Below are positions 21,739 to 58,126 of a stretch of DNA of 64,000 bases, piece by piece (the stretch's first letter is position 1; every line of letters starts with the position of its first letter). Both the position numbers and the translations under genes were made by a program. The DNA is from Xanthostigma xanthostigma (lineage: Eukaryota > Arthropoda > Insecta > Raphidioptera > Raphidiidae): NCBI GenBank assembly GCA_963575645.1, contig OY754464.1:62160948-62224947 (forward strand), given 5' to 3'. The notes below the pieces were generated by a model that saw only the letters and a list, made by a program, of their open reading frames with translations, was not told the origin of the DNA and did no database searches.

Positions 21739-23384
21739 TGTCGTTTACCCAGCCACACCTTTGCTGCAGTTGAGTTTTAATATTTAATTATGCTCTAAAT
21801 TACTAAAATTAAAATTTTGTCGAAACTATGAGAGTAATCGAATTTTATCAAGAGTACCTTTTTTGTAGTAAATGAGTCTCGTGATCTATATTTCATACTC
21901 AAACTGATTTTTTTCCATTGGCGTAGAAGTTTTAGATATTTAATTATCGAAAAAATCAAGTTCTACGCCCATGGAATGATATTCATCATTATTATGATAT
22001 GGGTTTTATTGCCCAATAGAGCTATGCCAACGTACCAAATTTGAGTAAAATCTCATGAGCCGTTTCAAAGTTATAAAGCAAAAACGATTTGAAATTTGTA
22101 CACTTTTAATGCGTCTGGCAGGATGATAGAACCCTCGAAACTGTCTGGCTACTTGTGAAACATTATTTAATAGTTCTCCAAAAAATATATATAAAATTCA
22201 GCTTTTATAAAATAACGTAAATATAATTACAAATTATAATAGTTTAAGGGTGTCTGGCAGGGGGTTGGAACCATACTAAGTGTCTGGCAATGAGCGACGC
22301 GAGTTTTAATATTGTTACGAATGAAATATAAAAAAATTGAGTTTTATACAATGACGAATTTGAGATGGAATTTTATACACCTTTGCTACCTGTTACCTGC
22401 CAAAGCCACCACTACTCAGGTTTCATGGGTGGGGATCATTCTTACCTGTATTGGAGACATCCATAGAAAAACTTTCAGCTTTTATAAAAATACGAAGGTC
22501 TGGCTGCCGCGGGCTCTTGGGCTAATATGTTTAGCGAGCTTTTAGATATAAAGATATCCATTGAATTCACAACATGTTCCATGTTTAACTTTTGTGCGTT
22601 TTTTTAGAAATAGAAAAATACTCGAAAACTAGGTAATGTTGGAAGGTGTCACCCTGTATAAAATAATAATGTCATATTGGGATTCAGCGCACTCGAAAAA
22701 ATACTTACTTCTAGAGCTTAGAATTTTTTAAGATTGTGAATTCAATGAATACCCCTATATTTAAATTCTCGCTAAACGTATCTGTAGTTAAAAATCTGTT
22801 GGTTTTTAGGCCATGCACCCATGGACATTTTTTCTTAGCGACCTTTAAACAATAAAATAAAACCATTTTCGATCAATTTAACCGAGAACTAAATCCTACA
22901 AGGTTTGTGCGGGATCCTTTGCTAAGTTTATGCTGGTCTAGTGTGCGACATCGTCCGGGTTGCAGATTTGTGCTGTGCAAGTCGTACAGGTTTGTGCTTG
23001 ACAAGTGTGCGCGGTCTTTAAACTGGCACGACCAGACGACAGTTTGAGAATGCCTGTGAAACTACGAGGCTTGCATACGGGGCACTTAGCTCCTTGTACT
23101 GAAAACAGCGAGGTATATGACCGGAGTCTGGCAGTAAAACAGCAGTTAAGTGACTGTACGTGTACACGTCTATTCTTTAATGTCGTCCATTTACTAATTT
23201 CATTCTGTTTGGTAGAGCATTTAAACTAATTACATCTTGTATTTCGACTCCATACAACTAATCCACAATAATTATTATTTGTCCGATTCTTAACTGACAA
23301 GAAGATATTTTATTGAGCTATAAACCAAAATAATTACATAAAATTAGAAGATGGGACCTAAAACTCGATGTAATGTTGCTATTT

Positions 23385-27150: not shown

Positions 27151-28165
27151 GTGGGGAGTGCAGTAATTTGTAAAATTACATTTAATGCTATATATGTATA
27201 TTATAAATTCTGTCCCATTTTAAACGCAAACGTTTTAAGAAAAAGTCAATGTAAATGATGGCATTAAATATTAAACTATGGATGTAAAACATAATATAAT
27301 TACAAATAAATATTACATGTCTTCAGTTAGAAAATTGTAAAATTTACGTGTGAAATATAACACCGCTTAGGGCATTGATGGAATTTTATGAATATTTATA
27401 AATATAGTTTCCCTAATGATAGGTTCTGAGAGAAAATTAGTAGGTCTGACTTATCACATTTTTTTCAAGTACAGTTCTACGTTTGAAAAGCAATTCAATT
27501 AGAACGTTAACAAGGTCTTGTATACTCAAACAACTATTATAGAAATGGTTTGCAAATAAGAAGTTAATCACGATTTTTAAACATAACATAATGCAGAACT
27601 AGTATATATGCAATTGCACTATTTGATATCAACTCTATATAAAAAAATATTTCATCAAATTTATTTTATTTTCTCAGGTTAGTAAATTATTAATTTTTGA
27701 AGCTAGTAGTTGTTAGAAACAATTTCCTGATTTTTTCAAAGGACATTTGAAGTGAGATCAATAATTTAAAACTCGTCGTACCTCAATAGTTAATATTTTT
27801 AAAATTAAACTAATCAGTCAATCAAACCTTATACAGCTGAAATTGCAGTATAACAAGAGATATTTTTATGTTTTTGGAGTTTACTTCTTAAGAAACGATT
27901 TTGAGTTTTAATGCCCGATACGAAAATTTTATAAGTAGTTAAATCAAGTGGTGAGGCGTTACGGCTCCCCCACTTCAAATGAGGCGTTACACTCTTCCGC
28001 TTCAAAAGAGACAAATATATATTATATCTGTAGTATTTAACGCGCGAAAGAATGAGATGGAATAGATTACACAGCGTATCTAAGGAGTAAACTCCGGTCA
28101 TGCGTCGGAGCTGACACACACACTTTTTTCAGAAAATCTAAGGCATTCAAGAAACTTTCTTAACA

Positions 28166-31100
28166 ATGTATAGTTTTGCAAAACTATATAAAATACAAGA
28201 TGTGATGCACAATTTAGCTGGTGTGGAATTGTTCAACAGTTCAAGAAACGTTGCCGTCATGTTAAGACTGTACAATATTTTCGTTGATGTCATCATGTTT
28301 GTGTGTATCATTGGGAATATCATTAATTATTTTAAAGATGATCAGCTTGATATTAAAATGCTTAATATTACATGCATTTTGTATTTTTCGGAAGAGTTAC
28401 TCTACGGTTTATACATGCGATTTAACCAAAGTAAACTCGACAAGCTGGCGAATCAGTTCAACGAAATAATAAACATAAGTATGATAGATTATGGGAAAAT
28501 ATTTTCCCAGCATTATGAAAACTACAAGAGTCGTCATACTCTTATCAGCAAAGTTGGAATAACGTGTAGTTTTGGTATTGTATTTTGTAGTTGTGCATTT
28601 GTCGGTACTCATTACGTATTAAACATATTGTCAGGAAAACGTCTTCCAGTGGTACCTGTGTGGTATCCCTTTGAAACCTTCAATTCGCCATATTATGAAA
28701 TATCTTCGTTCATTACTCTTTTTTGCTCGATAATTGCCGATATGAGATACTTTGCAATTATGTGCACCTCGTTATGTATGATAACAATGATGACTACACA
28801 ATATGAATTCTTAAATGACGCTCTGTTAGATGTCTTTGAACAGTTTGAAAACGCAGCCGAAGATTCTCGACATTCCTTAATACACACGTGGATAAAACAC
28901 AGCCAGAAAACGGAAAGGTTAGTTTTTTCATTCATGTGTCAAAATATAATTATTATTGTTTTACGTTATTTCAGAATTGGTATGTCATATATACGTGACA
29001 TTTCTGTAACTTCCATTTTATATTTTTGCACGGCCCCCTATAAAATAGCTACTTTTTTGGCCAGTAAAACGGTAGCAAGACGAGCCTTTTTTTTACTACT
29101 AACTACAGTAAAACGAAAGCGATGCGATTTTATCAATCCAATACATATATATCTATCAGCTGCCATTTAAATCCATATGAGCGACAGAGAAACAAAGTAG
29201 GCGCTGCTTAGTTCACTTAGACTCCAGAATGGCCGACTGTAAACTGTCAAAAATAATAAAAATATACTTATAATGATGTAAAAATCAGTAAGGAGGTCCG
29301 TGCAAAAAATGTGCTAGTAAAAAAAATGCCTTTAAAAATCGAATAACGGGAAGTAGATGAAACAATCATAGTTATAAACAAACATAAATAAATATAGAGG
29401 GTAAAGCTAAATAAAACTGTTTAAAATAATGCCTTTAAAATATTTTTCAGATTGTTTGATTCGTTTATAAATTACTATACTCAAATATTCAATATACAAG
29501 TTGGATTTTGTATTGTGAATGCATCTTCGATGATATATTTGGTTTTTTTCGTAAGTGTCTCATATTCAGTGTAGAATGTAGATAACTCCGAAATCTGGGT
29601 GAAGTTAGATTTACAGTGTGTTCAGTGTTCACCGATATTTGTAACAGTGTATAATTCTTGTATCCTTACTAGAATATAGAAACAAAAAATTTCAATAGTT
29701 TTTTTATTCAAGTCGTAATTTACTATCAAAAACTGCTGAGGTATTTTTTTTCTCCATAAATGCACAAAAATTTTATAAGGGGACATAAAAAAATATTCGA
29801 TAGACATAAGCTCGCGTCACATATTTGCTGTTATGCAAATAACAATTCGATTTTGAATAATTTTCTATGCTTATTTGAGACGTATTGACCCAACGATTAT
29901 GAAATTTTCAGCCTTCTAAGTTCATTAAATTTCCCCGGATTATTCGTGCGTCAGAGGTGTGTTCGTCACAAACATCGTATGTTGTATTGAAAATATTTAT
30001 TGAATATTGATGAAATTTTGCATAATTGTTTGAAATACATTTATTTCACAACAAAAAAACTTCCGAACATATTTTGTCTTACAGCAAGTTTTTATCTGAA
30101 TTTTCTTTTATAATTGCGTTGCTATAAGATAATATTAATTTGATAGAAGAATAAAGATCGGTGATGAATATATGTTTAATTAACTTTTATAAAAAATCAT
30201 TTTTAAAGCGTGTTTCTCATTCACTATTTAAGATAGAGCTGGTTTGGGGCTCAGCCTGTATTATTTCTTTTTGTAAAACCGACCGTTCACAAGATTTTTT
30301 GAAATAACTTATATCAGCTCAAATATTTTGACATTTTAGCGACAAGTGGCGTGCGGCGGCGGTCGTAAACATATTTGTAATTGAGATTTTTTGTAGAAAA
30401 AAAATTAGTCAAATCTTTGATTAACGTCTGATTAGAACTCTTCAATAAATAAAATTATCGACCAATTTTTCAGACAATATATTAACAAACAATATAAAAT
30501 TAATACATTAACGTTTCAATCCGGATTTGGACCTTTTTCAGAATTGATCTAAAAAATATAAAAATAATTAATATTTAAATATAATTCGCTTTTTATAGAA
30601 TTTTTCAAAATTAATTTTGAAAAATTCTATAAAAAGCGAATTATATATTTTTCAGAATTGATCTAAAAAATATAAAAATAATTAATCTAATATATAAAAT
30701 TCACGTGTCACAGTTTTCGTTGCCATACTCCTCCGAAACGGCTTGACCGATTTTGATGAAATTTTTTGTGCTTATCCGGTATCTATGAGAATCGGCCAAC
30801 ATCTATTTTTCATCCCCCTAAATGTTAGGGGTAGTCCACCCCTAATTTTTTTTTCTTCCTTCCCCATTCGTTCTTTTGCACCGGGCACGACGGCGCAGCC
30901 GGAGTGCTCGACATACACACATATACGTCCATGTATATTGTACCTATATTTTAAAATAAATAAAATAGATAGATAGATGTTCCAATTAAATTGTTTTATT
31001 ATTTCACTTTATACGTAGCGAAGCACGTACAGGGCCGCTAGTATTTAAATATAATTCGCTTTTTATAGAATTTTTCAAAATTAATTTTGAAAAATTCTAT

Positions 31101-33195
31101 AAAAAGCGAATTATATTTAAATATTAATTATTTTTATATTTTTTAGATCAATTCTGAAAAAGTCCAAATCCGGATTGAAACGTTAAATTATTAATTTTAT
31201 ATTGAATGTTAATAATATATTGTCTGAAAAATTGGTCGATAATTTTATTTATTGAAAAAAAAATTAGTATTGCACTTTTCACATTTTTTTTTATTTAAAC
31301 ATTAACGTAATATCGATTTATAAGTTTTATGCATGTTTTTCTATTTTACAATGTACTTATATACACTATTGATTTTGCGTATGCTTTATTTTTTGATATT
31401 TACTAAAATTATAAAAAAATAGGTTTTTTTGAAATATATCATTTGGTTTCAGCTGTACACAGATGTAACATTTGAAATATCTATTCTTGGCGTTATTGCA
31501 ACAAAATTTTTACAACTCTTTTTGCAGTGTATCGCTGCTGATAATTTAATTTTTACTGTAAGTAAGGCATGCGTTCTCTAAAAAAATTGTCTGTAATTTC
31601 GTTGTATTACGCACTATTTTGAATATTTAGCATATTAAGCGGTTGACGGGGACGTCAGCTCGCCGAAACCTGCCAACCTACTGAGTGTGAGCACGTTAAA
31701 AACGTAAACTTCGAAATAAAGTAAACGACATTGTATTCTAAGATGAAAAGAATAACCGTTTTTGGGGGAACCGTAAGTTACCCCTTTTTCACGGTCCGGC
31801 CTACTCCAGCCTGCCAACCATTGTATTTTTTTTTAAGCAGGGCTTAAATTTTCCAAATTTCTGTGAACTGGCCTTTTCGGCGATCCATAGGCTTTGAGTG
31901 TTACGGACTCTCATACTACTAGATAATAGACATTTTTTAGAATGTTTGCCTGTTCATCTGTCTGTCTGTATGCCGCATAGATATTTTTAAAGAACATTTG
32001 ATCTCATTTTGATGAAGCACTTCTTAAAACTTAATTCATGTTCGATATGCGCACGTGATAAAACTAGTATTTAAAATATTCTAATAGCAGAGTGAATGAT
32101 ATTTTATTTATTATAGAGAAACGGAATATCTGTAACAGCATTTACTGATGTGTGGATGAAGAATCCTTCAAAGTTTGGTCGAATTTTTGTGTTTATAATT
32201 GGAAATTTTCAAACATCCAAAAAAATAACCGTTTTTAAGCTATATGGACTTTCTTGCAGTTTGTTTTTGAACGTAAGTATTGTACGTTTAAAAAAATTTG
32301 AAAAAAAGATTGACCCTGCAGGCCATCCCTGAAACTACACGCTATTTTCGAGTTCAAAACGCTCAAAAATTTATAAAATGTAGCTAGAAGTTTATATTTG
32401 GCTCTTCGTGCTCAAAAAAAAAACACCTTCTTACGAATACAAATAAACCGATTTTGATGCGGTTTGCGGGGATCGACGCAATTATTTTAACTTAAGAAAG
32501 TAAATTATCACAAAAAAACGATCTGATAAGAATTTTATGAGTAGGTAATTTAAAAAAAAACACGTTTTTTTGATTTTTTCGCTCTCGATATCTCGTGAAC
32601 AAATAAACCGATTTTGATGCGGTTTGCGGAAATCGACGAAGTTTGTTAAGGATAAAAGCTGATTAGATTTTGGAATTAATTGGTTTAGTAGTTTAGAAAA
32701 TATTCTAAAAAACAATTTTCTAAACTTTTTTGAAACTTTTTTTTTTGAGATTTCTCAAAATTTATTGGGCCGAATTATTCCAAATTTTCAGGAAATCTAT
32801 GTTCAGCAAGGTTACGTCAAATGTTGCAAACCGTGTTTCAATAAGACACTCCGTTCAAAAGATATAAGAGGTTCACATACATACACACACATACACACAC
32901 CCCCACACACACCAGATACAGCCCTACGGACATTATCGCCAAAATAGTCAGAATAGCTTCCTTGGACCTCAAAACGTCGAGATCTGGCAAAAACTCGATT
33001 TTCAAAAATCGGGGTGAAAACAACTTCCCGATTTTTTTGAAAAAAAATAATTTTTGATTTTTTTATAGTGGGAAGTTAAAAACTTGATATATTTTAGTCT
33101 TTACAACAAAATGTTATATTGAGAGTTTTCTTTTTCAGGTTATTCGATTGTTCTATTCAGCAGTTACTTTGTTGCTGAGAATGGGAAATAACTAA
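28166..33195 (+). CDS. Odorant receptor, tandem copy 1 (five exons, 389 aa)
   Basis: Insect seven-transmembrane odorant receptor (7tm_6), by family knowledge a ligand-specific subunit of an Orco-containing cation channel in olfactory neuron dendrites. Exons: 28166-28917, 29451-29550, 31453-31557, 32117-32272, 33139-33195; all introns GT-AG; the first is phase 2 (codon 251 split), the rest phase 0. Hydrophobic segments at about residues 35-56, 64-85, 127-154, 178-208, 262-284, 290-313 and 357-384. The usual WYPFETFNSPYYEI loop precedes TM4. The C-terminus shows the family pattern W-x(n)-SKK-x(n)-YGLS-x(n)-YSAVTLL. The start is the ATG conserved in copy 2. Length is typical. A single-exon frame running to 29170 merely reads through intron 1. 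The ligand cannot be predicted. Confidence 0.93.
30410..31255. mobile_element. Foldback retroelement, Penelope-like, with hammerhead-like motif
   Basis: Flanked by a 13-bp direct repeat AAAAAAAATTAGT (30397-30409; 31256-31268) and absent from OR copy 2. Both ends carry inverted copies of CAATAAATAAAATTATCGACC. The inside contains two perfect hairpins (about 30566-30645 and 31043-31125: ATAATTCGCTTTTTATAGAA and its complement). The phrase CTGAAAAAG..CCAAATCC.. GATTGAAACGTTAA appears at 31152-31187 (+), and inverted with one base more at 30505-30545. CTGA...GAAACG resembles hammerhead cores reported in Penelope-like elements. A long variable TSD agrees with that class. Family assignment is inference. 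Confidence 0.55.
30686..31041 (+). mobile_element. 356-bp non-autonomous Helitron
   Basis: Begins TCTAATATATAAAATTCACG and ends GGGCCGCTAG before a host T. The adjoining copy of the host hairpin gives the uninterrupted sequence AATTAATATTTAAATATAA, so insertion fell exactly between A and T with no duplication, the Helitron rule. Includes the familiar phrase CTCCTCCGAAACGGCTTGAC (30727-30746). No Rep/helicase. Confidence 0.88.
31634..31912. other. Private insertion in intron 3 of OR copy 1
   Basis: Relative to copy 2 (intron 3: 237 nt), intron 3 of copy 1 (559 nt) carries about 280 extra bases including GGTTGACGGGGACGTCAGC and CGGTCCGGCCTACTCC. More GC-rich than surrounding intron sequence. 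No TIR or tRNA promoter recognised. Confidence 0.5.
32290..33085. mobile_element. Retroposon insertion in intron 4 of OR copy 1
   Basis: Intron 4 is 866 nt here but only 90 nt in copy 2. The extra DNA contains AATAAACCGATTTTGATGCG twice (about 32440 and 32600), a CA-rich microsatellite (32878-32912), CTTGGACCTCAAAACGTCG and GGGAAGTTAAAAA near the end. These phrases are typical of tails of RTE/SINE-like insect retroposons. No ORF. Confidence 0.55.
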
Positions 33196-34989: not shown

Positions 34990-36554
34990 ACATGTTTTAT
35001 GAAGATTTTCACTCTATTTTTCACTCTCTCAAGGGTTCTTTTTGAGATAAAATGTACCTAGAACACTCCTGATTTGAGCTGTTTCGAAGACTAACCCGGA
35101 CATACAGACAGATACTTAAATTTTATTCATACGTGTAGATTGAAACTAAAAACTCGAGTTTAAATAATAAATCGCGAACTTGTTTCGTTTGTCCTTGTCT
35201 GTCGCAAGGAACGATATAAAAATTGAAAGATAGCGTATGCCAGGCTTAAATTAAAACTGGAGGCTAAATTCTAATTTGGTCGTGCCATTTTTTGATGATT
35301 ATTATGTTTAAATATCATGGCTACCTGCGTTATAATGATCTTGTAACTTATTGGCGTCGGTTGGGTGGCGCAACCTAGGGGTCGTACCAAACTTTTTCGG
35401 CGTTTCCTTCCCTCCTGAACAATTATTTTTGGAAATATTTATATTTATGTACACTGTACAGTGTGTCCCATCCTACTTGAGACATATTATGTTTTAACAT
35501 GGGATTATGATAGTTTGTCATAATTTCCTCGCCATTGTTAAAAGTTGTCCATCGCGGAAAAACAGATAGATAATAATCAAACAAGTCGGGGTGGGGAGTT
35601 CAGTAATTTGTAAAACTACATATTTAGTTATAGGTACAGTAAAAGCTGTTTACACTGACCACTTACGGTTCTAGTGGTCGTTGTATACTGGTAGTCATTG
35701 TACAGAGAATGTGTAATGTAAGAATTAGACCGGTTCCTAGAAATATTGGTCAAAGTAGAGAGGATGATCATTTTTACAGGTTAATTGATATGAAATTTAT
35801 TGCTATATATTATTAATTCTGTCTCATTTTAAACGCAAGCGTTTTAACAAAAAGTCAATGTAATTATAGCATTAAATATTAAACTATGAATGTAAAACCT
35901 AGTATAATTACAAATAAATATTACATTTCTTCAATTAGAAAATTGTGAAAATTACGTGTGAAATATAACACCGCCTAGTACATTAATGGAATTTTATGAA
36001 TATTTATAAATATAGTTTCCCTAATGATAGGTTCTGAGAGAAAGTAAGTAGGTCTGACTTATCACACTTTTTCAAGTAGAGCTCTACGTTTGAAAAGCAA
36101 TTCAGTTCGGACGTTAATAAGGTTTTGGATACTCAAACAAAGTGAAACTATTATAGAAATGCTTTGCAAATAAGCAATTAATAACGACTTTTTAAAGAAA
36201 ACGAGTTACAGAAATAGTATAATACAATATTGGACTATTTGATATCAACTGACTCTACATAAAAATTATTTCATCAAATTTATTTTAATTTTTCAGGTTA
36301 GCAAATGACTAATTTTTGAAGCTAGTAATAATATGTCGTAAGAAAATATTTTCTGAAGCTTCAAATTTTGAAGTGAGATCAATTTAAAAACTCGTCATCC
36401 CTCAAGAGTTAATATTTTTAAAAATAGATTAATCAGTCAATCAAAACATATACAGCTGAAACTCCAATATAACATGTGATATTTTGCACTTTTATGCTTG
36501 TATTTTGATGTTTATTTTTCAGAAAATCTAAGACATCAAGAAACTTTCTTAAAA

Positions 36555-39500
36555 ATGTATAGTTTTGAAAAACTATATAAAATACAAGATGTGATGCACA
36601 ATTTAGCTGGTGTGGAATTGTTCAACAGTTCAAGAAACGTTGCCGTCATTATAAGACTGTACAATATTTTCGTTGATGTCATCATGTTTGTGTGTATCAT
36701 TGGGAATATCATTAATTATTTCAAAGATGATCAGCTTGATATTAAGATGCTTAATATTACATGCTTTTTGTATTTTTTGGAAGCGTTACTCTACGGTTTA
36801 TACATGCGTTTTAACCAAAATAAACTCAACAAGCTGGCCAATCAATTCAACGAAATAATAAACACAAGTATGATCGATTATAAGAAAATATTTTCCCAGC
36901 ATTATGAAAACTACAAGATTCGTCATAATCTTATCAGCAAAGTTGGAATAATGTGTGCTTCTGCTCTTGTATTTTGTAGTTGTGCATTTATCGGTACTCA
37001 TTACGTGCTTAACATATTGTCAGGAAAACGTCTTCCAGTGGTACCTGTGTGGTATCCCTTTGAAACCTTTAATTCCCCATATTATGAAATATCTTCGTTC
37101 AATACTCTTTTTTGCGCGGTAATTGCGGATATAAGATACGTTGCAATTCTATGCACCTCGTTATGTATGATAACAATGATGACTACACAATATGAATTCT
37201 TAAACGACGCTCTGTTAAATATCTTTGAACAGTTTGAAAACGGAGCCGAAGGTTCTGGACAATACTTAATGGATACATGGATAAAACACAGCCAGAAAAC
37301 GGAAAGGTCAGTTTTTTTATCCATGTATAAATATATAATATCATTGTTTTCCGTTGTTTCAAAACTGGTCTGTCATATACTTAAATAACATTTGTGTTTG
37401 TAGCTCTCATTTAATGTAATATATTTTTTGCACGAACGAAATAGCTACTTTTCAGGCCTGTAAAACGATAGCAAGACGAGCATTTTTTGCACTACTGACT
37501 ACAGTAAAACAAAAGTAATGCGATTTTATCAATCCAAAAGTTATATCTGAGTGATATCCACGAAGTATGTAACTAGGAGATCTAGCTTTCTATGTTTGCT
37601 GTGATTCGAGATGGACCTTTTTCTGGCGCGCGCGAGATGGCGCTGTTATCTCTACCTGGGAAAACTTTGGTTCTTTTTACCTGTTTTAGTTACGAAAGTT
37701 GTTTAACTTCACAGACAGTACACACATGTAAGCCATGAACGTGTGTGCGTTACCCTGTAGCTGACGCCATATTGTTTCATGCGACAGATATTGGTCCACC
37801 GCTACACTCGAGCTGATTCTCCTTATTATGACTTATTATATCTCTGCCATTTAAATCCATATGAGCGACAGAGAAACAAAGTCGATGCTCAACAGTTCAG
37901 ATAGATATCAACATTACCGAACGTTAACTGTCAAAAATAATAAAAATATACTTATTATGATGTAAAAATCAGTTAAGGAGGTCCGTGCAAAAATGTGTTA
38001 ATAAAAATAATGCCTTTAAAATATTTTTCAGATTATTTGACTCGTTTATAAATTACTACACTCAAATATTCAATATACAAGTGGGATTTTGTATTGTGAA
38101 TGCATCTTCGATGATATACTTAGTTTTTTTCGTAAGTGTCAGTTACACTCAGTTACTCAGTAGGTACCTACCTCAGAAATCCAGGTGAAGTTAGTTTTAC
38201 GCCGATTGTGGTGACAATGTATATTATTCTTGTATTTATCCTACTAGATGCAAAAAAAGTTTCAATATTTTTTTGTTCAACTCGAAATTTACTATCGGAA
38301 TTTGCTGAGACATATTTATTTTTACTTTTTATTTTCCACCGGAAATGTACATGAATTTTTTTCCAAATGGCAACATAAACTTTTTTATATTCTCGAAATC
38401 TATTTTTTTCTCCATAAATTCACATGAAGTTTTCATAAGGTTACATAAATATGTACAACCTTATGAAAACTTCATGTGAATAAATATTCTCGAAATCTAT
38501 TTTTTTTCTCCATAAATGCACAAAAAATTTCATAAGAGGACATAAGAAAAAATTCGATAAAAATTTTCCTGTAAGCTCGCTGGACATATTTTTGCCAATA
38601 TATAAATAACAACTCGATTTTGACTAAATTTGCTATGCTTCGTGCATCAGAGGTGTGTTCGTTGCAAACATCGTATGTTGTATTGAAAATATTTATTGAA
38701 TATTGATGAAATTTCGCATAATTGTTTGAAATACATTTAATTCACAAAAAAAAAAAATCTTGGAGCATATTTTCTTCATTATTTTGTTTTACAGCAAGTT
38801 TTTTTTATAATTGCGTTGCTATAGCATAATATTAATTTAACAGAAGAGTAAAGATCGGTGATAAATAATATACAGTATGTAAACACGTAAGGTGCACATA
38901 GGGAAATAACCATTGGGAAAAAATGACTGGATCAGAGTGAGTCTTGAAATCTTGTTTATCAATTTAACAGATAATATTCTTTTGCAAAATATCTCCGCCT
39001 ATTCGTGTTGAACCTAAAGACATTGGGTCACTGATTTACCAACGCGCATACGTCATACCACTCAGACAATTTTTGAATGAAATGTTTCCAAACAGATGGA
39101 GTTGTTTTTTTGCTTTATTTTTGTACAAAAAAATTAAAAAAATGATTTATATGAGCTTTTTATTATTAAAAAAGCCAAGTAAAATAAGAATAAATCAAAA
39201 TAAAATAGAAATCCTCAAGACTACCACGATAATTCAATAGAAATAACAATTAATGCAGTCATTTTTTCCCAATGCTAATTTCCCTATGTGCACCTTACGC
39301 GTTTACATACTGTATATTATATGCTTAATTAAAAGCCTCGCAACTTTTATAAAAAATCGTTTTTAAAGCGTGTTTCTGAGTCACAATTTAAGATAAAGAA
39401 GTGGTTTGGGGTTCAGGCTGTAGCAAATTTACTCTAGTTTAAATTTGAGACGAATATTTCTTTTTGTAAAACGACCGACCGTTCACAAGATATTTTGACA

Positions 39501-47425: not shown

Positions 47426-48438
47426 ATATTTTTCTTTTTTTTTCTTTTTCTTTTGTTTTATTTTATTCCACTTGATATTAATTATATATTATATTATGTA
47501 TATTTCTTAATTTTTTTTATTTTTGCAAACTTAAAAAAATATTTTTTCAATTTTTAATTATTTATTTCTTTAAATTTTTAAATCTTTTTAAATTTATTAA
47601 AAATATTTTTTAATTGTTATTTTTTTATCATACAGTGGAAAACTTGCGGAATGTGCACTTTTGGTTTTGCCAACTATTGCATATTGTAATATGCTTTCTG
47701 TAACATAGCAAGTAGCAACCTGTAAAACCCCGCCTTATAATATGTGAGTCAGTTACTGGCATAATATAACGTGATATGATTGACTCAACTAACTCAGTGG
47801 CTCAGTTGACTCGAATAACATATTCAGAACTCGGCTCTTTTTGAACCGGTTCAGGGAGCCGACTCACATATGAGATCCAGATGCAAAGATGCAGATCACT
47901 AAAAAGACCCGTTTAGGTCATCTCTAATTGACACCCAAAATGGAAATCACGATCGACAGTTCGCTACAATTGATATAACTTAGTTCTTTTAAATCAACCT
48001 AATATTCTGGTTTTATTCGTACATAGGACAGTTATTTACAGCACGTTCGACGCTCTTTGTGTCTTGTTATAGAATAATGAGCAACTTCAGGCGCTACAAC
48101 TGGATGACCAACCAAATATGAGCGTATAAAATGTGCTGTCTGCACTCTTGTTTGCCATTTCCTTTCGAAGTTCCAGAAGGGAGACTCGCTTTTTTGACGC
48201 AGAGTTGATCAGTTATCTCTCGTTTCGATGGAGAACGAACCCCGATCACTGACTGCTACCTTAAAGATTAATGGCCGTTGTAGGCTGCTATCTCGTATCC
48301 AGTTTATTATTTTAAAGAGTTCCTAATTAACTGGGATATAAATTGATTTACCGACAAGTATTACTGTTTATGTAGCGCCTACAGGAAACAGTAATACTCG
48401 ACGTTTTCAAGAAAAATTTACGGCGCGGACCCGAGCTG
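47426..48438. other. Gene-free stretch left of the palindrome
   Basis: AT-rich to 47640, then unique-looking sequence; CTGGTTCAG-type pieces (GAACCGGTTCAGGGAGCCGACTC at 47851-47873 against GAACCGGTTAAAGAGCCGGCTC near 46216) echo each other about 1.6 kb apart. This suggests the TTAA MITE and SINE lie inside a larger repeat. No gene. Confidence 0.45.
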
Positions 48439-48477
48439 CGCCTTTTTTCAGTTTTAAATTTGTTTGGTGTTTTTATA

Positions 48478-48850
48478 TCTATACTAATATTATAAAGAGA
48501 AAAGATGTGTATTTTCGTTTGTAATGAACAAACTCAAAAGCTACTGGACCGATGTAAAAAATTCTATCACTAATAGAATGCTACATTATCCCTGAGTAAC
48601 ATGGGCTATATTGTTAATCGAGTTGAATTAGGCGTCCCTACGAAAACTCCAATATTGTAACTCAAGGTGTAAGAAATAGATAATATAAAACTCAAAATTT
48701 GTCCGTCCGACAAAAACTTTTGCACGGTAACTCCGATCATCATGTTTGGACACAACATTAATTTTGGTAAACTGAGATGAACGTGCGTACTCAAGCTCCC
48801 CCTCCCCATTCGTTCTATTGCACCCGGGTGAAATCGGGACAAACCGCTAG
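48478..48850 (+). mobile_element. Helitron (Lep1-like), left arm
   Basis: 373 bp, TCTATACTAATATTATAAAG to GACAAACCGCTAG, inserted between A and T. A subterminal hairpin is visible (CACCCGGGTGAAATCGGG). Mirrored at 56597-56969. Confidence 0.85.
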
Positions 48851-49063
48851 TTCTGTCGTAAAATAGTTCAGGACGTGTATTTTCTAATCCAGTGATGGCG
48901 AACCTATGTCCCGCGGGTCAGACACAGACCCGCGAAGGCTTTTTAAATGACCCACGAGTTTATTTCTGTAAACTCATTTTTCATAACATAAAAGAGAGAA
49001 CAGTCAATCACACTAAATAAATAAAGCAAGTTATTTGCAATTCTAAAAACAAAAAAATATAAT

Positions 49064-49134
49064 TGTATCGGCCAGTAATCGATCACAGGGCGCCCGCGTG
49101 GCAAACGAGCATTCTACCACTGAACCACCGTCGC
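49064..49134 (-). pseudogene. tRNA-Gly(GCC)-like pseudogene, left arm
   Basis: The reverse complement reads GGTGGTTCAGTGGTAGAATG (intact A-box/D-arm of eukaryotic tRNA-Gly), anticodon region TTTGCCACG (GCC) and a CCGATACA end that can partly pair with GCGACGG. The T-arm/B box is damaged (TGATCGATTAC instead of GGTTCGATTCC), so Pol III function is unlikely. 71 nt. Lies inside the hAT-like element. Confidence 0.75.
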
Positions 49135-49764
49135 TCTTAAAGACTTGCTGCTTAAACTGCATTACTAAGAGCTGTTACTGTTTTTCCGTAAGCTTCCTTA
49201 ATTTCAAAAGTATATTAAAGAATTCGATTTTTACCCCTTTCAAAAATTTTTTGACAAAAACCGAAATCTTTCGGAACTTTGGCAAAATCATCATGCTTAT
49301 AGAAAAATCACGCTGAATCCAATGAGCACAAACAAACGTCTATATGTCTTCTGATTCAGAATTTATTTGCGTTTATAGTTTTCAGAAAATCATATAAAAT
49401 CTTCGAATGGCCGTAGTTTCCAAACTAAAAGAGATACTGACGTTTGCTTATGCTCATTAAATACAGCGTAATTTTTTCTGTAAGCATTCTCGATTTCAAA
49501 AGTATATTAAAGAATTCGATTTCTGAATTTTTTCAAGGCATTACCTCTTTAAAAAAGGCGATTTTTGACAAAAACCGAAATATTTCGAAACTTTGGCTAA
49601 ATCATCATGCTTATAGAAAAAAACACGCTGAATTCATCGAGGTCGTAAAACGTCATGTGTCGTCCAAAAAAAGTTTCGAATTAAAAAAACATAGTATTTA
49701 ACCATCCCCCCTCTCCATTTACAAGTAACGCCACTGACTTAGTGACCCACGAGCTAGTACTAAC

Positions 49765-50015
49765 ATAAAATTCCAGCCAATTGGGCGACGGGACCATTCC
49801 AACTTCAAAAATGTTGACAATTGATTATAATATCTAAAGAAAATAAAATTTCTAATATCGCGTGAGGTGACGCGGGTAATGGCTAGTATGCAATATGATA
49901 TTTGCTAATCGTTGGCATGGCTTCCTAGATAATATGTTCCACGTCATGTAAATATTAATCAAAACATGCCGAACTTTTGTTTATTTCTGACATATCCATA
50001 AAACAAAAGAGCGGC
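49765..50015. repeat. Repeat also present inverted at about 52025-52275
   Basis: CCAGCCAATTGGGCGACG, CCATTCCAACTTCAAAAATG, GACGCGGGTAATGGCTAGTA, CATGTAAATATTAATCAAA and CATGCCGAAC appear here forward and at 52025-52275 as complements, with small differences (for example GTGAGGTGACG versus GTAAGGTGACG). An older, diverged inverted pair nested in each arm of the perfect palindrome. Confidence 0.75.
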
Positions 50016-51123
50016 TTATTTTTTTTATTTTCAAAATATTTCCAAAACTATAAAGTTTAGAAAAAAAATTTTTTTGACGAAACTTTCTTGAAAAAATAAT
50101 AAATAAATAATCAAATAATAAACCGTTATGAAAAGTATACCATTATTATATAAAAAAAACACCGTTATAGCAAATATCTCTTCTGCGCATGCGCCGATTT
50201 TCTCCCCCAAAAAATAGGGCTCTTCATATTTGCATACCAAACATCCTCCCAAAATTTGGTTTCGATCCGCTCATCCGTTTGACCTGTATCGTGTTCACAG
50301 ACTAACAGACGCACAGAGATTTTTCAAAAATATGTTTTTTGGATTCAGGGGACCTCAAAACGGAAAGATATTGTAAAATTTTTGAAAAGTGATTTTTGAC
50401 CTAAACTAGTACCATTCCCCACTTGTGGGTTGGAATGGTAAAAGAATTAACAAAATTTGACCCACTTCCCAAAAAGGTTCGCCATCACTTGTTCTAGTCA
50501 TAATTTCTAAATCATAAAGACATCTTATTATAAATGTTCTAAAATTTCGGTTTTTTTTATCGAGTGTTAACCCCTCTTAAAATCCACAAAGTTGTTGAAA
50601 AGCTGTTCATCAAAGTGGTTTCAAGTAAACAGGTAACGCATACAATAACTGTCATATAATATACACAACAATCATATTATTTGATCAAACGTTATGAAGG
50701 TCGGCTGTCACTGACCGCTGGCGCTTTGGCGGTTTTCCAAACTGTAGTTCCTGGCTATTCACAGGAATAGTTAGCTTTAAACTAAGAACAGGTTAACTTA
50801 CGTGTATCTTCCATTTTCTCTTTGAGTTGAGTTATCTTATTGTGTTCATCTCAGCTTGTTTATTTACACACTTTCCTTTATCATTACAAAATAACTAAAG
50901 ACCAAATAAACAACTGTTTTTCTAAGTAAGTCTCAACATTTAAATCTTTTTATAGGTCACTAAATTTTCTATGTTTTTTTTACTCGGTGTAGAAGGTACT
51001 TACAGCGCGTGTCAAAAAATCTAAAATATTTAGATGCTGCAAAAACTATAAAGACATACCATGTTGACAAAATAATGATTTGTATAAGTGTGTGGCATTT
51101 TGTAACACTTTTAAAGAATAAGA

Positions 51124-51462
51124 TCTATATACAATAATAACAGAAATACCATCCACTGATTCACTGACTCATCACGATACCTCCACAATTATACGCCCGA
51201 TTGACTGAAATTGGGTTACTCCTTTCTCGACGTAGAATCCAACTAAAAACGGATTTTATGCAAATCCTATCCAAAACGGATTTTTCACCTACCATCACAT
51301 ATACTATATGGGTGTGAGTTGTTACGTGGGTGGGTGTGGATGGTTGCGTATAAATGTGAAGGTGAATATAACATATTACCCTTCTCCAGAAAAAGAGAGG
51401 GAGACCATGCATTACGAAATCTTACAGTTTTGTACCCGGATGACGCCGGGACGGACCGCTAG
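51124..51462 (+). mobile_element. Helitron, left arm
   Basis: 339 bp: TC start (TCTATATACAATAATAAC) after A; CTAG end at 51459-51462 before T; strong subterminal hairpin CCCGGATGACGCCGGG at 51435-51450. The frame 51161-51412 is not a known protein. Mirrored at 53985-54323. Confidence 0.75.
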
Positions 51463-52645
51463 TGCGTAATAAAATAACGAAAATGAACGTTTAAATCAGT
51501 TTCCAATACACTGGCATTGAAATGAAATGAAATAATTTGTGCAAGGAGTTTCGTTTTGAAGTTAATAATTCGAAAACAAACAAAAATCGCATAACAACAT
51601 TTGAGTTTTATTAAATTATATTTCCGTGTAGATTACACCCCTGGTGTTTGGTACGTTCTTTCCGACTCACCTGTGTAATTACTGTAAAAAATAAAATCAG
51701 ACTAGATTTGAATTCTGTACAAGCAACCTGTTTCATTTTATGTCGCATAATTTTTTTAATATAATCTTTATGTATTAATTAGTGTATTTTCCATATTGGC
51801 ACATGCACTATTGGCGTCTGTCGGATGGCGGGAGGTTTCATAGCATTCTGTGGTCTAAATAGCAGTCTTACGTTTACATGGACTTAAAATCTAATAAGAT
51901 ATTGGTTTTACTCACATGGATAGCAGACCCTTCTCTAGACAACACAATAATTTTAAATATCACAATAAGACAATCGTTTTAATATAAACACTTTTAAATT
52001 GAATACACAGAACGATTTTTAGGTTATAGAGTACGCTCTTTTATTTTATGGATCTATCAGAAATAAACTAGTTCGGCATGCTTTGATTAATATTTACATG
52101 ACGTGGAACATATTATTTAGGTAACCATGGCAACGAGTAGCAAATATCATATTGAATACTAGCCATTACCCGCGTCACCTTACACGATATCAGTAATTTT
52201 ATTTTCTTTATTATAATCAAATGTCAACATTTTTGAAGTTGGAATGGTCTCGTCGCCCAATTGGCTGGAATTTTTTTTTTGGAACGTCAAAATTTAGCGT
52301 TTCCTATGACAAAAAAAGCCAAAATTTGGGCACATCGAGTTATCGTACTGGATCCCGATTTTTATAGTAATTTATGAACATTAGACGATGTATTATTATA
52401 GATAATTAAAAGTGTTTTTTTTTTTTTTTCTGAAGATGTGTGTCTATTTTTATATGTTATATCCACTCCACATAGTATGTAAAGCATATGCAAATATACA
52501 AGAGGATATCATCTTTTGAGGTGGCCTGAATACATTTCAAAACGATAACATAACTCAATGGACTGAGTCGAAAATGCGAACAGACAACAATCTGGTTCAG
52601 GACAAACCCTACACCAAGCTGTCTTTACTTGAAAAGTTATTAATA

Positions 52646-52801
52646 GGTTCGTTCCAAGCAGCCAGCGAACGGTTTCGAAACCGTCACCCGCATGCGCAGT
52701 AGGTAAAACGAAGCTGTTAGTGACGATTTTAGAACACGTTTTACCTACTGCGCATGCGGGTGACGGTTTCGAAACCGTTCGCTGGCTGCTTGGAACGAAC
52801 C
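52646..52801. mobile_element. Hairpin MITE (family H) at palindrome centre
   Basis: 65-bp perfect inverted repeats (GGTTCGTTCCAAGCAGCCAG ... ) around the 26-nt spacer 52711-52736. TA at both sides. Here both halves are identical to the left half of the 57222 copy. The spacer reads AAGCTGTTAGTGACG..., the complement of that in 41307-41462 and 57222-57368. Confidence 0.92.
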
Positions 52802-53984
52802 TATTAATAACTTTTCAAGTAAAGACAGCTTGGTGTAGGGTTTGTCCTGAACCAGATTGTTGTCTGTTCGCATTTTCGACTCAGTCCATTGAGTTATGTT
52901 ATCGTTTTGAAATGTATTCAGGCCACCTCAAAAGATGATATCCTCTTGTATATTTGCATATGCTTTACATACTATGTGGAGTGGATATAACATATAAAAA
53001 TAGACACACATCTTCAGAAAAAAAAAAAAAAACACTTTTAATTATCTATAATAATACATCGTCTAATGTTCATAAATTACTATAAAAATCGGGATCCAGT
53101 ACGATAACTCGATGTGCCCAAATTTTGGCTTTTTTTGTCATAGGAAACGCTAAATTTTGACGTTCCAAAAAAAAAATTCCAGCCAATTGGGCGACGAGAC
53201 CATTCCAACTTCAAAAATGTTGACATTTGATTATAATAAAGAAAATAAAATTACTGATATCGTGTAAGGTGACGCGGGTAATGGCTAGTATTCAATATGA
53301 TATTTGCTACTCGTTGCCATGGTTACCTAAATAATATGTTCCACGTCATGTAAATATTAATCAAAGCATGCCGAACTAGTTTATTTCTGATAGATCCATA
53401 AAATAAAAGAGCGTACTCTATAACCTAAAAATCGTTCTGTGTATTCAATTTAAAAGTGTTTATATTAAAACGATTGTCTTATTGTGATATTTAAAATTAT
53501 TGTGTTGTCTAGAGAAGGGTCTGCTATCCATGTGAGTAAAACCAATATCTTATTAGATTTTAAGTCCATGTAAACGTAAGACTGCTATTTAGACCACAGA
53601 ATGCTATGAAACCTCCCGCCATCCGACAGACGCCAATAGTGCATGTGCCAATATGGAAAATACACTAATTAATACATAAAGATTATATTAAAAAAATTAT
53701 GCGACATAAAATGAAACAGGTTGCTTGTACAGAATTCAAATCTAGTCTGATTTTATTTTTTACAGTAATTACACAGGTGAGTCGGAAAGAACGTACCAAA
53801 CACCAGGGGTGTAATCTACACGGAAATATAATTTAATAAAACTCAAATGTTGTTATGCGATTTTTGTTTGTTTTCGAATTATTAACTTCAAAACGAAACT
53901 CCTTGCACAAATTATTTCATTTCATTTCAATGCCAGTGTATTGGAAACTGATTTAAACGTTCATTTTCGTTATTTTATTACGCA

Positions 53985-54323
53985 CTAGCGGTCCGTCCCG
54001 GCGTCATCCGGGTACAAAACTGTAAGATTTCGTAATGCATGGTCTCCCTCTCTTTTTCTGGAGAAGGGTAATATGTTATATTCACCTTCACATTTATACG
54101 CAACCATCCACACCCACCCACGTAACAACTCACACCCATATAGTATATGTGATGGTAGGTGAAAAATCCGTTTTGGATAGGATTTGCATAAAATCCGTTT
54201 TTAGTTGGATTCTACGTCGAGAAAGGAGTAACCCAATTTCAGTCAATCGGGCGTATAATTGTGGAGGTATCGTGATGAGTCAGTGAATCAGTGGATGGTA
54301 TTTCTGTTATTATTGTATATAGA
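53985..54323 (-). mobile_element. Helitron, right arm (mirror of 51124-51462)
   Basis: Exact reverse complement of the left-arm element, with CTAGCGGTCCGTCCCGGCG at its left end. Confidence 0.75.
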
Positions 54324-54955
54324 TCTTATTCTTTAAAAGTGTTACAAAATGCCACACACTTATACAAATCATTATTTTGTCAACATGGTATGTCTTTATA
54401 GTTTTTGCAGCATCTAAATATTTTAGATTTTTTGACACGCGCTGTAAGTACCTTCTACACCGAGTAAAAAAAACATAGAAAATTTAGTGACCTATAAAAA
54501 GATTTAAATGTTGAGACTTACTTAGAAAAACAGTTGTTTATTTGGTCTTTAGTTATTTTGTAATGATAAAGGAAAGTGTGTAAATAAACAAGCTGAGATG
54601 AACACAATAAGATAACTCAACTCAAAGAGAAAATGGAAGATACACGTAAGTTAACCTGTTCTTAGTTTAAAGCTAACTATTCCTGTGAATAGCCAGGAAC
54701 TACAGTTTGGAAAACCGCCAAAGCGCCAGCGGTCAGTGACAGCCGACCTTCATAACGTTTGATCAAATAATATGATTGTTGTGTATATTATATGACAGTT
54801 ATTGTATGCGTTACCTGTTTACTTGAAACCACTTTGATGAACAGCTTTTCAACAACTTTGTGGATTTTAAGAGGGGTTAACACTCGATAAAAAAAACCGA
54901 AATTTTAGAACATTTATAATAAGATGTCTTTATGATTTAGAAATTATGACTAGAA

Positions 54956-56557
54956 CAAGTGATGGCGAACCTTTTTGGGAAGTGGGTCAAATTTTGTTAA
55001 TTCTTTTACCATTCCAACCCACAAGTGGGGAATGGTACTAGTTTAGGTCAAAAATCACTTTTCAAAAATTTTACAATATCTTTCCGTTTTGAGGTCCCCT
55101 GAATCCAAAAAACATATTTTTGAAAAATCTCTGTGCGTCTGTTAGTCTGTGAACACGATACAGGTCAAACGGATGAGCGGATCGAAACCAAATTTTGGGA
55201 GGATGTTTGGTATGCAAATATGAAGAGCCCTATTTTTTGGGGGAGAAAATCGGCGCATGCGCAGAAGAGATATTTGCTATAACGGTGTTTTTTTTATATA
55301 ATAATGGTATACTTTTCATAACGGTTTATTATTTGATTATTTATTTATTATTTTTTCAAGAAAGTTTCGTCAAAAAAATTTTTTTTCTAAACTTTATAGT
55401 TTTGGAAATATTTTGAAAATAAAAAAAATAAGCCGCTCTTTTGTTTTATGGATATGTCAGAAATAAACAAAAGTTCGGCATGTTTTGATTAATATTTACA
55501 TGACGTGGAACATATTATCTAGGAAGCCATGCCAACGATTAGCAAATATCATATTGCATACTAGCCATTACCCGCGTCACCTCACGCGATATTAGAAATT
55601 TTATTTTCTTTAGATATTATAATCAATTGTCAACATTTTTGAAGTTGGAATGGTCCCGTCGCCCAATTGGCTGGAATTTTATGTTAGTACTAGCTCGTGG
55701 GTCACTAAGTCAGTGGCGTTACTTGTAAATGGAGAGGGGGGATGGTTAAATACTATGTTTTTTTAATTCGAAACTTTTTTTGGACGACACATGACGTTTT
55801 ACGACCTCGATGAATTCAGCGTGTTTTTTTCTATAAGCATGATGATTTAGCCAAAGTTTCGAAATATTTCGGTTTTTGTCAAAAATCGCCTTTTTTAAAG
55901 AGGTAATGCCTTGAAAAAATTCAGAAATCGAATTCTTTAATATACTTTTGAAATCGAGAATGCTTACAGAAAAAATTACGCTGTATTTAATGAGCATAAG
56001 CAAACGTCAGTATCTCTTTTAGTTTGGAAACTACGGCCATTCGAAGATTTTATATGATTTTCTGAAAACTATAAACGCAAATAAATTCTGAATCAGAAGA
56101 CATATAGACGTTTGTTTGTGCTCATTGGATTCAGCGTGATTTTTCTATAAGCATGATGATTTTGCCAAAGTTCCGAAAGATTTCGGTTTTTGTCAAAAAA
56201 TTTTTGAAAGGGGTAAAAATCGAATTCTTTAATATACTTTTGAAATTAAGGAAGCTTACGGAAAAACAGTAACAGCTCTTAGTAATGCAGTTTAAGCAGC
56301 AAGTCTTTAAGAGCGACGGTGGTTCAGTGGTAGAATGCTCGTTTGCCACGCGGGCGCCCTGTGATCGATTACTGGCCGATACAATTATATTTTTTTGTTT
56401 TTAGAATTGCAAATAACTTGCTTTATTTATTTAGTGTGATTGACTGTTCTCTCTTTTATGTTATGAAAAATGAGTTTACAGAAATAAACTCGTGGGTCAT
56501 TTAAAAAGCCTTCGCGGGTCTGTGTCTGACCCGCGGGACATAGGTTCGCCATCACTG
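54956..56557. mobile_element. hAT-like element, right arm (mirror of 48890-50491)
   Basis: CAAGTGATGGCGAACC starts at 54956 and GGTTCGCCATCACTG ends at 56557. Flanks GACTAGAA and GATTAGAA give the same 7/8 target duplication. Confidence 0.75.
56313..56383 (+). pseudogene. tRNA-Gly(GCC)-like pseudogene, right arm
   Basis: Plus-strand mirror of 49064-49134. A box TGGTTCAGTGG intact, anticodon GCC, B box degraded to TGATCGATTAC. Confidence 0.75.
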
Positions 56558-56596
56558 GATTAGAAAATACACGTCCTGAACTATTTTACGACAGAA

Positions 56597-56969
56597 CTAG
56601 CGGTTTGTCCCGATTTCACCCGGGTGCAATAGAACGAATGGGGAGGGGGAGCTTGAGTACGCACGTTCATCTCAGTTTACCAAAATTAATGTTGTGTCCA
56701 AACATGATGATCGGAGTTACCGTGCAAAAGTTTTTGTCGGACGGACAAATTTTGAGTTTTATATTATCTATTTCTTACACCTTGAGTTACAATATTGGAG
56801 TTTTCGTAGGGACGCCTAATTCAACTCGATTAACAATATAGCCCATGTTACTCAGGGATAATGTAGCATTCTATTAGTGATAGAATTTTTTACATCGGTC
56901 CAGTAGCTTTTGAGTTTGTTCATTACAAACGAAAATACACATCTTTTCTCTTTATAATATTAGTATAGA
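56597..56969 (-). mobile_element. Helitron (Lep1-like), right arm
   Basis: Mirror of 48478-48850: CTAGCGGTTTGTCCCG at its left end, CTTTATAATATTAGTATAGA at the right. Confidence 0.85.
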
Positions 56970-57008
56970 TATAAAAACACCAAACAAATTTAAAACTGAA
57001 AAAAGGCG

Positions 57009-57286
57009 AAGATGTGTGTCTATTTTTATATGTTATATCCACTCCACATAGTATGTAAAGCATATGCAAATATACAAGAGGATATCATCTTTTGAGGTGG
57101 CCTGAATACATTTCAAAACGATAACATAACTCAATGGACTGAGTCGAAAATGCGAACAGACAACAATCTGGTTCAGGACAAACCCTACACCAAGCTGTCT
57201 TTACTTGAAAAGTTATTAATAGGTTCGTTCCAAGCAGCCAGCGAACGGTTTCGAAACCGTCACCCGCATGCGCAGTAGGTAAAACG
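57009..57286 (+). repeat. Third (direct) copy of the inner 278 nt of the left arm
   Basis: Identical in the parts compared to 52433-52710, at a constant offset of 4576. It starts at AAGATGTGTGTC directly after the palindrome arm ends (AAAAAAGGCG). With the inverted copy at 52737-53014 the segment is present three times. Confidence 0.93.
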
Positions 57287-57368
57287 TGTTCTAAAATCGT
57301 CACTAACAGCTTCGTTTTACCTACTGCGCATGCGGGTGACACCGTTCGCTGGCTGCTTGGAACGAACT
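57222..57368. mobile_element. Hairpin MITE (family H), right copy
   Basis: 147 bp, TA on both sides (57220-57221, 57369-57370). The right repeat lacks 9 nt (GTGACACCG instead of GTGACGGTTTCGAAACCG). Spacer 57287-57312 reads TGTTCTAAAATCGTC..., opposite to the palindrome centre. The right flank (TTATTGTCTTCTG) is unique, so this is probably the original insertion. Confidence 0.9.
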
Positions 57369-57370
57369 TA

Positions 57371-57679
57371 TTGTCTTCTGTACCAATTCATACATTTAGA
57401 TATTAAGAAATCAACGGTTTAAAGTACCTATTTGACACTTTTCCAGCACGCGATACAATGATTCTATAAGCCGTATTGGTACATTTGCATGGTTTTATCA
57501 AATAAAATTACTTGTGAACACACTAATTTAAAAAAATAAATGTAAACAACGTAGCCATAATAAAATAGTCATCATACAAAAAAATATGTGATGTTTTAGT
57601 AAAATTGGTGTCACTCTGTTTTCAACATAACGGGTTTAAAAAATCATGTTTTTTCACGCAAGTATTATGTCATTAAATA
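57371..57679. other. Gene-free stretch
   Basis: AT-rich sequence without recognised features. Confidence 0.4.
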
Positions 57680-57689
57680 TTAATCATTT

Positions 57690-58126
57690 ATCTTTAAATA
57701 CTTGATATTAAATAGTGGGTAGTAAGGACAAGTTTTTTTGTGGAATATTATTTAATTTTATTGCCAACGTTTCGTCAAATAATTATTATAAACAATTTAT
57801 TATCAATCAATATTTAATTGGTATATTGATATATTGTTCTGCTAGTTGGGTTATATTGGATTTAATATTTATGACGTCTGTGGAGTAATTGTATATTTGG
57901 TAATTTTCAAATGTTTTATAAAAAAAAGAAGTTGAGGTTAGATTTTGAATGCATTCATTTATTGATGTTTATTTATGGACATGTTTATTATGTATATTTT
58001 GATGTTCTGTATTTTTATTGTATAGCCCTGAAGAAGTCAAGAATTATTTGACGAAACGTTGGCAATAAAATTAAATAATATTCCACAAAAAACTTGCCCT
58101 TACTACCCACTATTTAATATCAAGTG
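57690..58126. mobile_element. Foldback element with hammerhead-like motif
   Basis: Inverted arms: CTTGATATTAAATAGTGGGT, TTTTATTGCCAACGTTTCGTC on the left; GACGAAACGTTGGCAATAAAA, ACCCACTATTTAATATCAAG on the right. Flanked by a 10-bp repeat TTAATCATTT (57680-57689; 58127-58136). At 58028-58062 CTGAAGAAGTCAA..TTGACGAAACG forms a stem closed by CTGA-GA / GAAA, hammerhead-like; the other arm lacks the CTGAAGA half. Penelope-like by TSD and motif; inference. Confidence 0.55.

What the first reader, a model, noticed from the sequence alone, without database searches (positions are those of the whole stretch)
48439..57370. Inverted duplication/triplication built on a hairpin MITE
The order is a-b-S-b'-a'-b-S'-flank, where a=48439-52432 and b=52433-52710. 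The first switch point lies in the inverted repeats of a 156-bp MITE. The second joins 57008 to 57009 with about 1 nt of shared sequence. Structures with one inverted-repeat junction and one microhomology junction are known from replication template switching (the DUP-TRP/INV-DUP class in human disease). Here a transposon hairpin would have supplied the inverted repeat. The arms look identical, even at a 15-nt homopolymer, so the event is very recent, or arms are being converted, or it is an artefact.
Basis: partly seen in the sequence, partly recalled or inferred. Interest (0 to 1): 0.85.

Follow-up and report, generated by a model that had tools for sequence, protein, structure and literature searches.

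The report
Inverted triplication seeded by transposon hairpin
In an unnamed 623-Mb genome, probably an insect's, a 4.3-kb stretch appears to have been copied backwards from inside a small hairpin-shaped transposon and then rejoined to the forward sequence, leaving a long perfect palindrome of a kind already known from human disease and yeast.

Summary
The order is a(3994)-b(278)-S-b'-a'-b-S'-flank; both a copies and all three b copies are letter-identical, and the 26-bp spacer is flipped in the centre. Ancestral a-b-MITE-flank plus two joins reproduces window 48001-58000 with 0 of 10,000 differences. Comparison with other MITE copies shows that the right-hand MITE is the original (29 of 30 assessable copies share its spacer/terminus orientation). 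The centre MITE is a left-arm/left-arm chimera, so the turn-round lies inside the terminal repeat: within 64 nt, or 28 nt if a private 9-bp deletion is older. The return join has 1 nt of perfect microhomology.

Copy profile 1-2-3-2-1, one inverted-repeat junction, one microhomology junction and a flipped inter-repeat segment match DUP-TRP/INV-DUP as published for human PLP1/MECP2. I file it as a new member of a known kind. Unusual are the MITE source of the repeat and one intact 4.27-kb perfect palindrome. None of 29 other MITE loci examined shows a comparable inverted duplication, so a general role for these MITEs is unsupported. Amplification or assembly artefact cannot be excluded without reads.

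The parts
48439..52432 (+). segment a, original copy (3994 bp), present twice
   Evidence: exact reverse complement of 53015-57008
52433..52710 (+). segment b, first copy (278 bp), ends in MITE left arm; present three times
   Evidence: identical to 57009-57286 and to the reverse complement of 52737-53014
52645..52802 (.). centre MITE, 158 bp, chimera left arm / flipped spacer / left arm
   Evidence: both termini AGGTTCG type with flipped spacer
52683..52710 (+). junction 1 (turn-round) interval, 28 nt, if the 9-bp deletion in the right arm predates the event; otherwise 52647-52710
   Evidence: 28-nt identity of left arm and reverse-complemented right arm; terminal G/A difference at 52646
52711..52736 (-). 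spacer S, 26 bp, flipped copy
   Evidence: reverse complement of 57287-57312
52737..53014 (-). segment b', inverted copy
53015..57008 (-). segment a', inverted copy
57008..57009 (.). junction 2: a' end joined to b start, 1 nt perfect microhomology
57009..57286 (+). segment b, third copy
57221..57369 (+). original MITE, 149 bp, 9-bp deletion in right arm
   Evidence: canonical termini and spacer orientation of the family; strong hairpin, -75.7 kcal/mol against shuffled mean -21.05, z -20.6
57287..57312 (+). spacer, canonical orientation

Best explanation
A single structural mutation of the DUP-TRP/INV-DUP kind. The ancestral locus read left flank - a - b - MITE - right flank. Shown by the sequence: one new junction exchanges the MITE's left arm for the reverse complement of its right arm, and one new junction joins the end of a' (48439, read backwards) to the start of b (52433). 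Inferred: DNA synthesis moving through b reached the MITE's left arm, its 3' end moved to the inverted partner arm on the other template strand, copied backwards through the spacer, b and a for about 4.3 kb, then returned at 1 nt of microhomology to the start of b and ran on through the original MITE into the right flank. The product is an almost perfect 8.57-kb palindrome with a 26-bp spacer. Arm identity implies a recent event (up to about 86,000-121,000 generations at published moth/butterfly rates) or continuing arm-to-arm conversion.
For: Exact copies and flipped spacer. The model built from the ancestral pieces gives 10,000 of 10,000 bases (the pieces come from the window, so the test is of arrangement and identity). 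The fold-back variant that keeps the spacer orientation gives 22 differences. The family orientation identifies the right MITE as original: 28 of 28 non-window copies in the alignment plus L005 share it, and 1 of 30 assessable (L066) has a flipped spacer. The two right ends that the regex missed (L022, L023) were read by eye. No second full-length copy of b, of 50481-52432 or of the two flanks among the candidates scored. Human PLP1 precedent: one case with the inverted-repeat junction in 24 bp of identity, one with a ~254-bp triplication, and a flipped segment in the product (passages).
Against: The process is read from a product; no outgroup or other haplotype was available to show the ancestral state. 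Spacer orientation is weak evidence because it can flip later: one other copy is flipped and the 4.27-kb arms could recombine. The 1-nt microhomology has no statistical weight. No similar event was seen at 29 other MITE loci.
Confidence: 0.62

Rival explanations
1. ODIRA plus erosion. Leading-to-lagging strand switching at two inverted repeats first made a full inverted triplication (through a hairpin-capped or dog-bone intermediate); the left palindromic junction was then removed by end joining, leaving the 1-nt join.
For: The published unifying model derives DUP-TRP/INV-DUP this way, with one junction eroded at little or no microhomology (passages of PMC10766186; PMC10766183). It would give the same final sequence.
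Against: Needs an extra step and an inverted repeat to the left of 48439 that was since lost from the junction; no relic of the deleted second copy of a is present. I did not search the left flank for candidate repeats.
Confidence: 0.17
2. Break, fusion and repair. Sister chromatids (or broken ends) fused through the MITE arms, giving a palindromic chromatid, which broke and was end-joined to the start of b.
For: Crossover between the left arm and the inverted right arm gives the same centre with a flipped spacer (reasoned, not computed); break/replication/fusion routes are proposed in print (PMC12807874, listing and abstract start only).
Against: Needs a second, independent break within 4.3 kb and precise rejoining to the same locus.
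Confidence: 0.09
3. Artefact: chimeric molecules from amplification-based library preparation, or mis-assembly, carried into the consensus.
For: Template switching during amplification is known to make artificial structural variants (passage of PMC11226609). Perfect identity over 4272 bp, including a 15-nt homopolymer, is what a recent artefact would also give. The sequencing method of this genome is unknown to me.
Against: Two joins return the sequence to the expected right flank and the a-b arms are found only here. A polymerase turning round at a molecule's end would leave no flipped 26-bp spacer inside a MITE. A minority chimera should lose in consensus.
Confidence: 0.12

Closest known systems
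DUP-TRP/INV-DUP at human PLP1 and MECP2 (Beck et al. 2015 PMC4352052, passages; Carvalho et al. 2011, cited there, not held)
   Same: Two junctions, four copy-number steps; Jct1 between inverted repeats, Jct2 at 0 to a few bp of microhomology; segment between the repeats flipped in the product; triplications as small as ~254 bp.
   Different: Here the inverted repeats are the arms of one 158-bp MITE with a 26-bp spacer instead of ~20-kb low-copy repeats ~50 kb apart; the right-hand DUP is therefore only about 26 bp and a long perfect palindrome results; non-human, unselected locus.
ODIRA inverted triplication in yeast (PMC10766183, passages)
   Same: Turn-round at a short interrupted inverted repeat; inverted centre copy.
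   Different: In ODIRA both junctions lie at short inverted repeats; here junction 2 does not.
Small inverted triplications (SIT) of yeast rad27/FEN1 mutants and cancers (PMC13334657, outline and passages)
   Same: DUP/INV/DUP architecture with short spacers (median 30 bp; here 26) and template-switch model.
   Different: SIT medians are 148/160/148 bp with ~6-bp reverse-complementary junctions; here the inverted copy is 4.27 kb and junction 2 has 1 nt.
Inverted duplications at Drosophila rearrangement breakpoints (PMC7584159, passages)
   Same: Insect germline, inverted duplications explained by MMBIR-type switching near non-B DNA.
   Different: Tied to a chromosomal inversion, with no perfect multi-kb palindrome and no MITE arm described in the passages seen.

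Membership tests
DUP-TRP/INV-DUP | copy-number order 1-2-3-2-1 with the middle copy inverted | tested here: met
   a 2x, b 3x, spacer 2x, flanks 1x in the assembled sequence; read depth not available
DUP-TRP/INV-DUP | junction 1 within a pair of inverted repeats | tested here: met
   turn-round inside MITE terminal repeats, 28-64 nt interval
DUP-TRP/INV-DUP | junction 2 at microhomology or blunt | tested here: met
   1 nt perfect
DUP-TRP/INV-DUP | segment between the repeats present in flipped orientation | tested here: met
   26-bp spacer reverse-complemented at centre; could also have flipped later
DUP-TRP/INV-DUP | formed in one replicative event with an ancestor lacking it | not testable with these tools
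   no parents, relatives or other haplotype held for this genome
ODIRA (without later erosion) | both inversion junctions at short interrupted inverted repeats | tested here: not met
   junction 2 jumps 3994 bp with 1 nt shared; no inverted homology between the two sites in the window self-comparison at E 1e-5 (80 best rows printed)
ODIRA (without later erosion) | replication origin inside the amplicon | not testable with these tools
   no origin data
SIT | ~6-bp reverse-complementary junctions at both ends, sub-kb inverted copy | tested here: not met
   inverted copy 4.27 kb; junction 2 has 1 nt. The paper's ranges reach several kb, so size alone does not exclude it
simple fold-back (hairpin-primed) inverted duplication | loop kept in original orientation | tested here: not met
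   22 of 10,000 bases differ from that model; conclusion holds only if the spacer has not flipped since

The most novel reading that the evidence does not exclude
Near-perfect hairpin MITEs act as strand-crossing platforms for replication forks, so that a high-copy MITE family repeatedly seeds DUP-TRP/INV-DUP events, spacer flips and partial tandem duplications, and this is how some long perfect palindromes arise in insect-like genomes and persist without erosion. Hints in the same family: one copy with a flipped spacer (L066) and one with a 119-bp internal tandem duplication (L055).
Probability: 0.13. Interest if true: 0.62.

Novelty: new member of a known kind. Interest (0 to 1): 0.4.

Why it matters
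The junction in the inverted repeat, hard to map in human cases because the repeats are many kilobases long, is here confined to 28-64 nt by sequence differences between the MITE arms. The locus also keeps an intact palindromic junction, which the authors of the unifying model report not having found unambiguously in their limited human survey (passage). It shows that a 158-bp transposon hairpin can be enough of an inverted repeat. A survey of hairpin MITEs in long-read genomes could test whether they raise the rate of inverted triplication. As one event in non-coding, transposon-rich DNA it has no evident function.

Tried and rejected
Recurrence at other MITE copies: among 29 non-window MITE loci held at about 1.5 kb either side, the self-inverted match centred on the MITE stays within 182 bp in 26. 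The three longer ones are L023 (a second, older MITE copy next door), L013 (a 67-column inverted flank match, score 80) and L038 (38 bases, score 41), short and diverged flank matches, not multi-kb duplications; L013 and L038 are the 2 of 29 that exceed all of 200 shuffles. In one search, with 50 shuffles, L014 and L029 also exceeded the best shuffle by 3 and 1 points; this did not hold with 200. The loci are a sample: the tool scored 40 of 1276 candidates and I had loci for 30 of them, two from the window.

Taxon test with the chorion family PF01723: nothing rang, also not in 14 control genomes, so uninformative. Rfam: 0 matches in the window. Pfam on 8 of the 33 stop-to-stop stretches of 90 aa or more that one search printed: only a reverse-transcriptase fragment, below its curated cut-off.

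A second inverted structure at 19.7-22.5 kb was considered as a sister event and rejected: it is a multi-copy fold-back element.

Simple fold-back with kept loop: rejected unless the spacer flipped later.

Literature: six searches. In the rows listed (5 of 5, 15 of 40, 15 of 17,030) no title or abstract start names a MITE-seeded DUP-TRP/INV-DUP; this is no proof of absence from print. Read as passages: PMC13334657 (with outline), PMC10766186, PMC10766183, PMC4352052, PMC7584159, PMC11226609, PMC10048334. Not held: Brewer 2011 and Carvalho 2011.

Full report
Observation. The window lies at C1:62160948-62224947 of an unnamed assembly of 623 Mb in 28 contigs. Self-comparison finds one inverted repeat 48436-57011 against itself. 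Letter by letter, a = 48439-52432 is the exact reverse complement of 53015-57008; b = 52433-52710 equals 57009-57286 and the reverse complement of 52737-53014; the spacer 52711-52736 is the reverse complement of 57287-57312. Arms of 4272 bp with no difference and a 26-bp spacer cannot be chance.

Where else. Searches of the assembly with b, with 50481-52432 (1952 of the 3994 bases of a) and with the two flanks give no second full-length copy beyond those in the window; b and 50481-52432 appear at this locus only. These searches score at most 40 candidates, and 48439-50480 was not searched. Parts of all four queries match repeats: the last 70 or so bases of b are MITE, 52034-52274 is a repeat, and the first ~780 bases of the left-flank query are a multi-copy repeat at 97-98%. 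No contig carries an unduplicated allele among the matches shown.

Which MITE is the original. Thirty MITE sequences, 28 of them from elsewhere, were aligned. The family has unlike ends: one terminus reads AGGTTCG, the other CGAACTT, and the spacer has a fixed orientation relative to them. This holds in 28 of 28 non-window rows and in L005; L066 has the spacer flipped; L004 lacks a readable right end (L022 and L023 right ends read by eye). So 29 of 30 assessable copies are canonical. The right-hand window MITE is canonical. The centre MITE has the AGGTTCG end on both sides. It is therefore a chimera of two left arms, and the right-hand MITE, flanked by b and the right flank, is the original. 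The original's right arm has a 9-bp deletion that no other row shows. If that deletion is older than the event, the exchange lies in the 28 nt between it and the spacer; if not, in the 64 nt inside the terminal G/A difference.

Junction 2. Leaving a' and entering b, the two templates share 1 nt (G), and 2 of the next 3 bases agree. The entry point is 3 nt after the T15 tract. Nothing statistical can be drawn from 1 nt.

Test of arrangement. Left flank + a + b + reversed spacer + b' + a' + b + spacer + right arm + right flank equals window 48001-58000 in 10,000 of 10,000 bases. The fold-back version with spacer orientation kept differs at 22. Both models use the window's own pieces, so this tests order, orientation and identity only. 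The ancestral model is 5424 bases over the same span; the event added 4576.

Mechanism. Shown: two new junctions, the direction of each, and a flipped spacer. Inferred: that polymerase template switching made both. The flipped spacer fits a 3' end leaving the left arm before the spacer was copied and landing on the partner arm of the other strand. A strand that had copied the spacer and then folded back would keep its orientation. The caveat is real: L066 shows that spacers flip in this family, and perfect 4.27-kb arms could recombine. The original MITE folds strongly as single-stranded DNA (-75.7 kcal/mol, shuffled mean -21.05, z -20.6), so it is a plausible obstacle to a fork. ODIRA followed by erosion, and fusion/breakage, predict the same final letters.

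Age. No difference in 4272 bp gives, with a 95% bound of three expected changes on two arms, at most about 121,000 generations at 0.29e-8 (Heliconius) or about 86,000 at 0.41e-8 (silkworm) per site per generation (rates from passages of PMC10048334; arithmetic). This assumes the organism is comparable and that arms do not convert each other.

Known kinds. In the passages seen, PLP1 DUP-TRP/INV-DUP has two junctions, Jct1 in inverted repeats (one case within 24 bp of identity), Jct2 at microhomology, a flipped segment, and one triplication of ~254 bp (PMC4352052). The present locus meets each of these that sequence can test. The yeast ODIRA and SIT classes fit less well. [quoted passage not shown] here one is.

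Is it a hot spot? Not on this evidence. Of 29 other MITE loci with about 1.5 kb of flank, 26 have no inverted match beyond 182 bp, and the other three have short explanations or short diverged matches. Two lesser oddities, the flipped spacer of L066 and a 119-bp tandem repeat inside the MITE at C3:24339454-24339712, show only that such hairpins change in several ways.

Organism. Probably an insect, perhaps a moth or butterfly: the Helitron-like ends at 48477-48850 and two long receptor-like open stretches (28142-29167, 36480-37385) look so to me from memory. Pfam names neither stretch, and the chorion search was uninformative.

Verdict. A real feature of the assembled sequence, well explained by a known kind of mutation, in an unusual setting. 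Interest 0.4. The untested artefact possibility holds the score down.

Noticed in passing
window 19693-22480: Fold-back element with ~709-bp arms (98.5-99.6% alike in the window) and about 205 bp between them; the 40 best-scored places in the genome match the arm at 95-100%. Its left arm holds a 1162-bp inserted element (19949-21110) with mirrored ends and a 4-bp AATT duplication.
   Followed up: partly
L055 (G000:C3:24338583-24340582), bases about 875-1131: A MITE of the same family whose inner part, spacer included, is repeated in tandem (119-bp step) through its own internal GGTTTCGAAACC palindrome.
   Followed up: partly
L066 (G000:C9:28608427-28608586): The one assessable MITE copy of 30 whose spacer is flipped relative to its termini; no inverted flanks beyond 163 bp.
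   Followed up: partly
L013 (around G000:C3:45937665): MITE lying between inverted flanks (67 aligned columns, score 80 against best of 200 shuffles 33), possibly inserted in an older hairpin.
   Followed up: no
window 28142-29167 and 36480-37385: Two similar long open stretches that look like insect gustatory receptors (from memory; no Pfam match), within a larger tandem duplication (27197-29150 and 35806-37546, 85-89%).
   Followed up: no
window 30579-30646 and 31039-31126: Perfect 68-bp palindrome and a related 88-bp one (98%) 400 bp apart.
   Followed up: no
window 49767-50013 and 52034-52274: Two inverted copies (91%) of a multi-copy repeat inside segment a, so the palindrome arms hold further inverted repeats.
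   Followed up: no
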